NCBI RefSeq assembly: GCF_017084525.1
Contig: NZ_CP070950.1
Location: 2,356,001-2,420,000, forward strand
Direction: 5' to 3'
Length of the DNA: 64,000 bases
Origin: Conexibacter sp. SYSU D00693
GTDB taxonomy: Bacteria > Actinomycetota > Thermoleophilia > Solirubrobacterales > Solirubrobacteraceae
Shown: in pieces, positions 2,339 to 4,847 of the stretch
Layout of the letters: each line of letters begins with the position of its first letter
How positions within the stretch are numbered: position 1 is the first letter of the stretch
Notes under the pieces: generated by a model
Databases searched by the model: none
Seen by the model: only the letters and a program-made list of their open reading frames with translations
What the model was told of the DNA's origin: nothing
Translations under genes and position numbers: made by a program

Positions 2339-2776
2339 ATGGCAACCCCTCCCCGCAGCGGCAGCGCGGTCTGGCGCGGTGACCTCCAGCAGGGCGACGG
2401 CGAGCTGACCGTCGGCGACGGCGTCTTCAGCGGCCCCTACACGTTCAAGTCGCGCTTCGAGGACGGCGACGGCACGAACCCCGAGGAGCTCATCGCCGCG
2501 GCCCACGCCTCGTGCTTCGCGATGGCCTTCAGCAACGTCCTCGCCGAGGCAGGCACGCCCGCCGACGAGGTCAAGGCCAGCGCCCGCGTCCAGCTGCGCA
2601 TCCTCGACGACGGCCCCGCGATCACGAAGATCGCCCTCCAGGTCGAGGGCAAGGTCCCGGGCATCGACGAGGCCACCTTCCTCCAGCACGCCGAGGCCGC
2701 CAAGGCCGGCTGCCCGGTCTCCAAGGCGCTGGCCGGCGTCCAGGAGATCACGCTCGACGCCAAGCTCGCCTCCTAG
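2339..2776 (+). CDS. OsmC/Ohr-family peroxidase
   Basis: 145 aa, the usual length of OsmC-type thiol peroxidases, which reduce organic hydroperoxides in the cytoplasm. The two redox cysteines are visible: Cys59 in AAAHASCFAMAFS and Cys125 in AGCPVSKAL. The AVWRGDLQQGDGEL start and NPEELIAAAHASCF core are typical of the OsmC/YhfA branch rather than Ohr proper. The start at 2339 is supported by AAGGAG at 2324-2329, nine bases upstream; this is one of the few genes here with a textbook ribosome-binding site. The physiological hydroperoxide cannot be read from sequence. Confidence 0.9.
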   Translation: MATPPRSGSAVWRGDLQQGDGELTVGDGVFSGPYTFKSRFEDGDGTNPEELIAAAHASCFAMAFSNVLAEAGTPADEVKASARVQLRILDDGPAITKIALQVEGKVPGIDEATFLQHAEAAKAGCPVSKALAGVQEITLDAKLAS

Positions 2777-2838: not shown

Positions 2839-4413
2839 GTGTCCCTGACGGTCGACGACATCTCGGCGCTCTACGAGGCGCACGCACGTGAGCTGCGGGC
2901 CACCCTGGTGCGCCGTACGCGCGACCCGGAGCTCGCGCGCGACCTCGTCGCCGAGACGTTCGCCGTCGCGGTCGAGCAGCGCGCGAGGTTCCGCGGGCAG
3001 ACCCGCCAGGAGCAGGCCGCCTGGTTGCACGGCATCGCGCGCAGCCTCCTGCACACGGCGTGGCGGCGCCGCGCGGCGGAGCGTCGTGCCCTCGCCCGCG
3101 TGGGCGTGGAGACGGCCGACCCCGAGTTCGACGACGCCGAGGCCCGAGCCGACCTCGAACGCCGGCGTCCCGCCCTCACCGCCGGGCTGGACGGCCTTGA
3201 CGCCCGCCAGCGCGAGGCGGTCCAGCTGCGGGTCGTCGACCAGGTCGGCTACCGCGAGATCGCGGCCCGGCAGGGCGTGAGCGAGCAGGTCGTGCGCGCC
3301 CGCGTCTCCCGCGGTCTGCGCCGGCTGGCCGCCGTCCTCGCGGTGGGCCTGGCCGGCGTCGGCCTCGGCGTGCCGCTCGTCCTCGGCGACGAGGGTCCCG
3401 CCCCGTCCTTCCTCGAGCGCGCCTACGCCGCGGTGAGCGGGCCGGGGGTCGTGCACTGGGAGACCGACCTGCAGTTCTTCGTCGACGGCCGGCGCACGTG
3501 GCAGCGCCAGCGCACGGAGGGCTGGCAGGGCGGCGGCGTCACCCGCGTCCGGCAGTTCGAGCGCCACGGGCGGCGCTTCCAGCTCATGGCCGACCGCCGC
3601 ATCGCCGGGGGCACGCAGCGGGCGTACCTGCCCACCCAGGACGACGTCGTGACGCTGCCTGCCCCGCGCGGCGCGGTCGGCGGGGACGGGCTGCCCACCG
3701 GCGATCCGGTGCGCGCCTTCCGCGAGGCCTACCGCGAGGGGCGCCTGCGCCGCGTGGGCCCCGGCCGCTACCGCCTCGCGCTGAGCGGTGGCGTCGCCGC
3801 CACCTACACGTTCGACCGCACCACGGCCCGCGTGCGGCGGATCGTCTTCACCACCCCGGGCGGCCGCGGCGCGCAGGGAGCGCCCGCGAGCCGGATCGAG
3901 GTCACGGTCACCCGCTACGCGCTGCTGCCCGACTCGGCCGCGGCCCGCCGGGCGCTCGAGCTGCGCGTCCCTCCCAGCGCGGGCCCCGTGCCCATGGACG
4001 CCGCCGCGCACTTCGCGGTCCTGCGCACCGGGGCGCGGCCCACCGCCGCCGAGCGCCGCGCCGTGGAGCTCGCAGCGCGGATGCGGCGCCGCACGCCGAA
4101 CACCATGGCGATCGACGCGTCCGGGGCCCGCCGGGTGGGGCCCGGCCTGCTCCTCGTCCCCGGCCCGCAGCACGTCTGTCTCTGGCAGGTCGACGCGCGA
4201 GGCAGTGGCGGGACCTGCCGGACCACGCGCAACGCGCTGCGGCGGGGCCTGAGCATCGGCTCGCCGAGGACCGGCACCGCCGTGGCCGTGCCCGACGACG
4301 TGCGCGCGGTCCGCGGACCGGCGCGCGCCCGCGGCCGTCGCGCGACCTACGCCGTGCGCGGGAACCTCGCGCGCCTGCCCCGCGTGGGCGGGCCGCTGAC
4401 GCTCGTGCGCTAG
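2839..4413 (+). CDS. ECF sigma factor fused to membrane and extracytoplasmic domain
   Basis: 524 aa, about three times a normal ECF sigma factor. Residues 8-75 are sigma region 2 (ALYEAHARELRATLVRRTRD then ELARDLVAETFAVAVE) and ~112-165 region 4, ending in the helix-turn-helix EIAARQGVSEQVVRARVSRG. A single hydrophobic span (about 165-183, VLAVGLAGVGLGVPLVLG) follows at once. Residues 190-375 then form a beta-rich region beginning FLERAYAAVSGPGVVHWE, resembling LolA/RseB-like folds; a further ~120 residues hold a Cys pair (447, 460). This would tether the sigma factor to the membrane with a sensor outside, with no separate anti-sigma gene beside it. The GTG at 2839 is chosen because region 2 begins 8 residues later. 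Its stop overlaps that of the hemoglobin gene. Confidence 0.8.
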   Translation: MSLTVDDISALYEAHARELRATLVRRTRDPELARDLVAETFAVAVEQRARFRGQTRQEQAAWLHGIARSLLHTAWRRRAAERRALARVGVETADPEFDDAEARADLERRRPALTAGLDGLDARQREAVQLRVVDQVGYREIAARQGVSEQVVRARVSRGLRRLAAVLAVGLAGVGLGVPLVLGDEGPAPSFLERAYAAVSGPGVVHWETDLQFFVDGRRTWQRQRTEGWQGGGVTRVRQFERHGRRFQLMADRRIAGGTQRAYLPTQDDVVTLPAPRGAVGGDGLPTGDPVRAFREAYREGRLRRVGPGRYRLALSGGVAATYTFDRTTARVRRIVFTTPGGRGAQGAPASRIEVTVTRYALLPDSAAARRALELRVPPSAGPVPMDAAAHFAVLRTGARPTAAERRAVELAARMRRRTPNTMAIDASGARRVGPGLLLVPGPQHVCLWQVDARGSGGTCRTTRNALRRGLSIGSPRTGTAVAVPDDVRAVRGPARARGRRATYAVRGNLARLPRVGGPLTLVR

Positions 4414-4847
4414 CGCTCGCCGTGGAGCGTGATGGTGAGCGGCTGCGGCTCGCCGGGCTCGACCGGCAGGCCCTGGATGCGGCGGTGGAAGGCGCGCGCC
4501 ACCCGCGTGGCGTGCGCCTTCGCCAGCTGCGCCTTGGGGCCCGCGAAGAGCTCGTCGACGGTCTGGGTCCAGAGCGCCAGCCAGCGCTCGAAGTGCCCGC
4601 CGCGCAGCGGCGACAGGCGGTTGAGCGAGGCGTGCGGGGCGAAGGCGCCGCCGCTGTAGGCCGGGACCCCGAGGAGGATCGTCTCCCAGAACGAGGCGAT
4701 CACCGGCAGGTGCTCGTCGAGGTCGAGCTTCGCGACGTCGGTGAAGAGGTAGCCGATCATCGTGTCGCTCATGGCGCGCTCGTAGAACGCGCGCACCAGG
4801 CGCTCGACGTCGGCGCGGGTCTCGATGTCGGTCAGGGGCTCGGCCAT
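4410..4847 (-). CDS. Truncated hemoglobin, group III-like
   Basis: 145 aa, close to the usual truncated-globin length. The residues FYERAMSDTMIGYLF (B helix), HLPVIASFWETILLG (E helix) and HFERWLALWTQTVDELF (F/G helices) match group III truncated hemoglobins; His85 in GGHFERWL is the expected proximal heme ligand. Family members bind O2 or NO and are linked to NO or oxygen handling. The gene converges on the ECF-sigma gene, sharing the bases CTAG for both stops, and its start is 22 bp from the divergent acetyltransferase start, so that gene's promoter overlaps this gene's 5' end. Group assignment is from motif memory, not alignment. Confidence 0.85.
   Translation of the reverse strand: MAEPLTDIETRADVERLVRAFYERAMSDTMIGYLFTDVAKLDLDEHLPVIASFWETILLGVPAYSGGAFAPHASLNRLSPLRGGHFERWLALWTQTVDELFAGPKAQLAKAHATRVARAFHRRIQGLPVEPGEPQPLTITLHGER

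What the first reader, a model, noticed from the sequence alone, without database searches (positions are those of the whole stretch)
2839..4413. ECF sigma factor fused to a membrane span and an extracytoplasmic domain
The protein contains sigma regions 2 and 4, one transmembrane helix immediately after the DNA-binding domain, and ~340 further residues with a LolA/RseB-like look outside. If correct, one polypeptide carries sensor and sigma factor with no anti-sigma partner, so release from the membrane (for example by proteolysis) or activity at the membrane would be needed. The domain order is visible; the fold of the outer domain is inferred from strand pattern only.
Basis: partly seen in the sequence, partly recalled or inferred. 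Interest (0 to 1): 0.75.

Follow-up and report, generated by a model that had tools for sequence, protein, structure and literature searches.

The report
Sigma factor fused to membrane sensor
In this actinobacterium a gene-switching protein (an ECF sigma factor) is joined in one chain with the membrane-spanning sensor that its relatives make as a separate neighbouring protein, so the switch is probably freed by cutting the chain at the membrane; this independently re-creates a design known from the Pseudomonas protein IutY.

Summary
ORF 2839-4413 (524 aa) is one continuous coding frame: ECF sigma factor (sigma2 11-79, sigma4 115-163), one transmembrane segment (about 164-184) abutting the last sigma4 helix, and about 340 extracytoplasmic residues. 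Residues 388-524 form an extra beta-rich domain holding the protein's only two cysteines.

In genus and family the same parts are normally two genes: a sigma gene and, usually overlapping it by 4 bp, a membrane partner with a short cytoplasmic tail, one TM segment and a variable sensor. Only the window has them fused (1 of 146 family genomes searched), and the fusion lacks the partner's cytoplasmic tail. The sigma part keeps 27 of 28 clade-conserved residues. Sigma and sensor come from different sigma-partner lineages, so the fusion is a mosaic.

Most likely mechanism: membrane-tethered latent sigma, released by regulated intramembrane proteolysis, as shown for IutY. The kind is known; this is an independent, so far unique variant with a LolA/RseB-type sensor. 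Not excluded: an assembly error, or a protein under relaxed constraint.

The parts
2839..4413 (+). Whole fusion gene, GTG start, TAG stop, 524 aa: ECF sigma factor - TM segment - extracytoplasmic sensor
   Evidence: ORF list and sequence; uniform GC3 across ORF
2869..3075 (+). sigma2 (residues 11-79)
   Evidence: Pfam PF04542, E 3.3e-9; helical in full-length model
3181..3327 (+). sigma4 with helix-turn-helix (residues 115-163); final helix 149-171 runs into the membrane segment
   Evidence: Pfam PF08281, E 1.4e-10; full-length model; 27 of 28 clade-conserved residues kept over the sigma part
3328..3390 (+). Transmembrane segment AAVLAVGLAGVGLGVPLVLGD (residues 164-184), N-in by positive-inside rule; Gly/Pro-containing
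   Evidence: Hydropathy 2.32, controls in unfused sigmas
3406..3984 (+). LolA/RseB-fold sensor domain (residues 190-382), extracytoplasmic
   Evidence: AlphaFold2 model of residues 164-524, mean pLDDT 81.8; Foldseek LolA E 2e-6; VIA Z 14.2 (4mxt), 13.1 (8cgm), RseB 11.2 (2v43); 36% identity to L008 partner over 203-519
4000..4410 (+). C-terminal beta-rich subdomain (residues 388-524) found only in the closest relatives (L008, L017, L009 remnant); fold not separately tested
   Evidence: Alignments; secondary structure of the models
4177..4218 (+). Cys447 to Cys460, the only two cysteines of the protein, conserved as a VC...GxxC pair; candidate disulfide, fitting an outside location
   Evidence: Cysteine count; alignment

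Best explanation
A single-polypeptide signalling system: a membrane-tethered, latent ECF sigma factor. The sigma domain is held at the inner face of the membrane because its last DNA-binding helix continues into a TM segment; the outer part is a LolA/RseB-fold sensor, which may bind a lipid, a lipoprotein or another hydrophobic ligand, plus a small domain with a probable disulfide. A signal outside makes the outer domain cleavable; a site-1 protease trims it and a site-2 (M50) protease cuts in the TM segment, freeing the sigma factor to join RNA polymerase. It arose by joining a sigma gene to a membrane-partner gene of the kind that relatives keep separate, with loss of the partner's cytoplasmic tail. 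Shown: anatomy, fold model, two-gene state in relatives, conserved sigma residues. Inferred: topology, latency, proteolysis, ligand.
For: Domain content and TM. LolA/RseB fold. Same parts as adjacent genes: L008 sigma 710-1315 and partner 1312-2568 sharing ATGA; 42 of 58 ECF loci (genus plus some from the family) have a TM partner next to the sigma gene, 37 loci have a 4-bp overlapping start. Sigma intact: 27 of 28 conserved residues, as in unfused family members, which depart at 0-6. Own genome has M50 site-2 protease candidates (best 199 bits) and an S41 (Prc-family) peptidase (168 bits), as most bacteria do. Precedent: IutY has sigma4 ending at 164, then a TM segment, then a periplasmic anti-sigma domain, and is activated by Prc then RseP; its truncated forms are constitutively active and, if the TM is present, need RseP (PMC5411451, PMC9249621).
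Against: The fusion is a singleton, so no conservation of the fused state can be shown. The sigma part has a long branch (0.83; median end branch 0.31), which may mean relaxed or shifted constraint. No target promoters, no cognate protease and no ligand identified. How the sigma is kept inactive without a cytoplasmic anti-sigma segment is unknown; tethering may be enough.
Confidence: 0.6

Rival explanations
1. Tethered sigma that works at the membrane without release: the sensor changes conformation or oligomerises and the sigma domain recruits RNA polymerase to promoters near the membrane, as one-component membrane regulators of the ToxR/CadC type do.
For: The sigma4 recognition helix is continuous with the TM segment in the model, giving a direct mechanical path; no cytoplasmic anti-sigma segment needs to be removed.
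Against: RNA polymerase holoenzyme is large and sigma4 must contact both the flap and -35 DNA while almost no linker separates it from the membrane; no precedent among ECF factors found in the papers read; IutY requires RseP cleavage (PMC5411451). The junction has low model confidence (pLDDT under 50 at 163-184).
Confidence: 0.12
2. Evolutionary accident or relic: a deletion or rearrangement joined two genes and the product is being lost or serves only as a sensor or dominant-negative protein.
For: Singleton. Deletions do break this family: in G001 an out-of-frame internal deletion joins sigma region 2 to the partner's C-terminal domain beside lgt. Long sigma branch; sensor homologs L008 and L017 pair with a different sigma clade.
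Against: 27 of 28 conserved sigma residues kept; full-length open frame with high GC3 throughout; sensor keeps the Cys pair and a confident fold.
Confidence: 0.15
3. Assembly or sequencing artefact: two overlapping genes collapsed in frame by a missing stretch of roughly 100-200 bp.
For: Only one genome carries it; relatives have stop, start and a 30-60 residue tail exactly where the window has none.
Against: Single-contig genome; uniform codon pattern; a loss would have to be in frame and remove a whole tail; sigma and sensor belong to different pair lineages, so it is not a simple collapse of a known pair.
Confidence: 0.07
4. Two products from one gene: an internal start (GTG 3277 or 3292) makes a separate membrane partner with a short cytoplasmic tail, so the two-protein system persists in overlapping form.
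For: In-frame GTG codons at 3277 and 3292 just before the TM segment; the stretch GGCAGGGC before GTG 3277 resembles GGCAGGC before the gene start.
Against: Weak Shine-Dalgarno likeness only; the internal product would hold part of sigma4 instead of a partner-like tail; the fusion product would still be made.
Confidence: 0.06

Closest known systems
IutY of Pseudomonas putida (ECF243 sigma/anti-sigma hybrid)
   Same: ECF sigma2-sigma4, a TM segment directly after sigma4 (sigma4 100-164 in IutY, 115-163 here), extracytoplasmic sensor; classical relatives are two separate proteins
   Different: IutY's outer part resembles FecR and answers to the TonB-dependent receptor IutA; here it is LolA/RseB-fold plus an extra domain, in an actinobacterium; proteolysis is shown for IutY only (PMC5411451, PMC9249621)
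ECF48, ECF52 (SCO4117) and ECF53 sigma factors of Actinobacteria
   Same: Single-chain sigma, TM and long outer extension in Actinobacteria; proteolytic activation expected (PMC8999054, PMC5826349)
   Different: Those carry a zinc-finger (anti-sigma-like) domain as well as the TM helices; here there is none and the TM segment follows sigma4 at once
Two-gene sigma plus membrane-partner pairs of Solirubrobacteraceae, including CU044_5270 (NF038083) partners
   Same: Same parts and order; L008 and L017 partners share the sensor (36-39% identity)
   Different: Partner is a separate protein with its own cytoplasmic tail; the window sensor itself gives no NF038083 hit
RseB/MucB with RseA/MucA
   Same: LolA-type fold used in envelope sensing that controls an ECF sigma
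   Different: RseB is a separate soluble periplasmic protein acting on the anti-sigma factor; its second domain is not shown to match here

Membership tests
ECF sigma factor | sigma2 and sigma4 as the only sigma-70 regions | tested here: met
   Pfam and NCBIfam hits above cut-off, no other sigma-70 region hit; helices in model
ECF sigma factor | binds core RNA polymerase and initiates at a promoter | not testable with these tools
   Conserved residues kept 27/28, function not tested
IutY-type sigma/anti-sigma hybrid | sigma, one TM segment, extracytoplasmic regulatory domain in one chain, with the TM directly after sigma4 | tested here: met
   IutY limits from PMC9249621
IutY-type sigma/anti-sigma hybrid | FecR-like periplasmic domain | tested here: not met
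   No Pfam hit of the outer part at E 10, FecR included; the model of residues 190-382 matches LolA-type folds. Hence not filed as an IutY/ECF243 member
IutY-type sigma/anti-sigma hybrid | activation by site-1 then site-2 proteolysis | not testable with these tools
   Only candidate proteases present
ECF48/ECF52/ECF53 | zinc-finger anti-sigma-like domain in the extension | tested here: not met
   Sigma4 ends at 163, TM starts at about 164; the only cysteines are 447 and 460
LolA/RseB fold (outer domain) | LolA-type half-barrel fold | tested here: met
   Foldseek E 2e-6, VIA Z up to 14.2 on a model of mean pLDDT 81.8; shared fold shows no function
CU044_5270 family (NF038083) | NCBIfam score over the curated cut-off | tested here: not met
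   No hit for window or L008 sensor; weak partial hits of related partners L019, L021

The most novel reading that the evidence does not exclude
An ECF sigma factor that acts while anchored in the membrane, with sigma4's DNA-binding helix continuous with the TM segment and a lipid-sensing LolA-type domain outside, so that transcription is started at the membrane without proteolytic release.
Probability: 0.1. Interest if true: 0.8.

Novelty: new variant of a known kind. Interest (0 to 1): 0.45.

Why it matters
It is a second, independent case of the IutY design (sigma directly followed by TM and sensor), in another phylum and with a different sensor fold. The genus keeps dozens of close two-gene relatives, so fusion and pair can be compared directly: does plain tethering replace an anti-sigma segment? 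The family also shows a broad sensor repertoire attached to one membrane-partner plan, mostly undescribed in the papers searched, with LolA/RseB-type sensors inside the ECF partner itself rather than in a separate RseB.

Tried and rejected
Genome-contig scan with the full protein found nothing; with the sensor alignment only Solirubrobacter soli, the same genome as G164. Pfam and NCBIfam gave no name to the outer part. PDB profile search of the outer part gave only chance hits. Twenty long-frame ECF candidates from the family were read for further fusions: nineteen end 6-19 residues after sigma4, one (L121) matches only to residue 109 and then shows no hydrophobic stretch. Conserved neighbourhood: globin relatives in the genus have neither OsmC nor the fusion within the fetched flanks. 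Own-genome lgt has no sigma/partner pair beside it; the weak tblastn hits there lie in Ala/Pro/Arg-rich sequence. Alignments A3, A5 and A7 misplaced the partners and were not used for folding. CU044_5270 is not mentioned in the paper library; two ECF classification/evolution papers (PMC7826278, PMC7671368) were not held, so ECF groups with a sigma4-TM junction described there could not be checked.

Full report
What is there. The window lies in a 4.43-Mb single-contig genome (G000) of a relative of Solirubrobacter: one genome of the same family, G164, has a contig of the same length and place as Solirubrobacter soli DSM 22325, which puts the window in the Solirubrobacteraceae (Actinomycetota, Thermoleophilia). 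The ORF at 2839-4413 encodes 524 residues. Residues 8-164 are a complete ECF sigma factor. A single TM segment follows at once, at about 164-184. The rest, about 340 residues, has no Pfam or NCBIfam name. GC at third positions stays at 0.92-1.00 along the entire frame, so the junction is not a frameshift effect.

The outer part. An AlphaFold2 model from eight sequences has mean pLDDT 81.8. Foldseek against the PDB returns LolA, LolB, RseB, MucB and LprG, best E 2e-6; VIA-align gives Z 14.2 (rmsd 3.1, 163 aligned) for 4mxt, 13.1 (3.9, 174) for LolA 8cgm and 11.2 (4.3, 154) for RseB 2v43. The match covers protein residues 190-382. Residues 388-524 form a second beta-rich part whose fold was not tested alone. 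It holds the protein's only two cysteines (447, 460), conserved in the closest relatives, in keeping with a disulfide outside the cell. In the full-length model the last sigma4 helix (149-171) runs into the TM segment, where confidence is low (pLDDT under 50 at 163-184); sigma and outer part fold as separate units.

The state in relatives. The nearest sensor relatives are partner proteins, not fusions. In G006 (same genus) the sigma gene L008:710-1315 and the partner gene L008:1312-2568 share ATGA; the partner is 36% identical to the window over residues 203-519. Solirubrobacter soli (L017/L107) has the same two-gene form. In 58 ECF loci taken from the genus and some from the family, 42 have a partner with an early TM segment and 37 have a 4-bp overlapping start. 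These partners begin with about 30-60 residues, often with a DLxxLR-like start and an Arg-rich stretch, then the TM segment, then very different outer domains. The window fusion lacks this tail entirely: sigma4 goes straight into the membrane. Some of the partners belong or are related to NCBI's CU044_5270 family; the own genome has five matches, two of them (L010, L011) directly after ECF genes.

How rare the fusion is. Of 61 genomes searched first, only three, the own one included, have a sensor match; of 146 family genomes ten match a two-row profile; the sensor match is fused to sigma only in the window. Among ECF genes of 146 family genomes, I read 20 listed ones with frames of at least 300 aa that had not been examined before; none is a fusion. 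The limits are that only 25 candidates per genome were scored and that the listing was cut, so a distant fusion could be missed.

History. The sigma domain falls in a well-supported 25-row clade of the genus, whereas the closest sensor relatives (L008, L017) are paired with sigmas of a distant, also supported clade. The gene is thus a mosaic, not just a collapsed pair. In G001 the pair beside lgt is broken by an internal, out-of-frame deletion that joins sigma region 2 to the sensor's C-terminal domain, so deletions do occur in such operons. In the own genome lgt lies 1.9 Mb away, without such a pair.

Is it functional? The sigma part keeps 27 of 28 residues that are at least 90% conserved in its clade, like true members (0-6 departures). 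Its branch is long (0.83 against a median of 0.31), which is a caution.

Mechanism. IutY of P. putida is the tested precedent: sigma4 ends at residue 164, a TM segment follows, then a FecR-like periplasmic domain; Prc trims the outer part and RseP cuts at the membrane to free the sigma factor; truncated forms that keep the TM segment still need RseP (PMC5411451, PMC9249621). The window protein has the same layout with another sensor. The own genome has M50 and S41 peptidases, which is permissive only, since most bacteria have them. I take release by regulated intramembrane proteolysis as most likely (0.6). The LolA-type fold suggests a hydrophobic ligand (lipid, lipoprotein) by analogy with LolA, RseB and LprG; this is inference, and the lgt neighbourhood of the two-gene relatives in G006 and G001 is only suggestive.

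Comparison. ECF48, ECF52 and ECF53 are actinobacterial sigma-TM fusions too, but their extensions hold a zinc-finger domain (PMC8999054, PMC5826349); that feature was tested and is absent here. FecR likeness, which marks IutY, is also absent. So it works like IutY but is not a member of its group: a new variant of a known kind.

Noticed in passing
window 4410-4413: The fusion gene and the convergent gene on the minus strand (4410-4847, group III truncated haemoglobin by PDB sequence match 2ig3, E 1e-6) share the palindrome CTAG: each uses a TAG from it as stop, so the genes overlap tail to tail.
   Followed up: partly
window 2402-2776: An OsmC-family protein (Pfam E 1e-18) ends 62 bp upstream of the fusion on the same strand; possible co-transcription with a peroxide-related gene.
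   Followed up: no
L009 1498-2062 (G001): Broken sigma-partner operon: an out-of-frame internal deletion joins sigma region 2 to the partner's C-terminal domain, next to lgt and a conserved 128-130 aa ORF without Pfam match.
   Followed up: partly
L008 2550-3850 (G006) and L009 226-1513 (G001): The two-gene relatives of the sensor sit beside lgt (prolipoprotein diacylglyceryl transferase), tempting for a LolA-type sensor; not so at the window gene, whose genome has lgt elsewhere.
   Followed up: partly
L002, L046, L066, L070 and other genus loci: A large set of ECF genes (21-26 matches in the richest genomes of the genus) with ATGA-overlapping membrane partners that share a short cytoplasmic tail plan but carry many unrelated outer domains; a largely undescribed sensor repertoire.
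   Followed up: partly
L005 1498-2631 (own genome): A second ECF fusion without TM: sigma2 and sigma4 followed by a Peptidase_C26 / class-I glutamine amidotransferase-like domain (Pfam E 2.5e-38), 377 aa in one frame. An enzyme domain attached to a sigma factor is unusual and was not pursued.
   Followed up: partly
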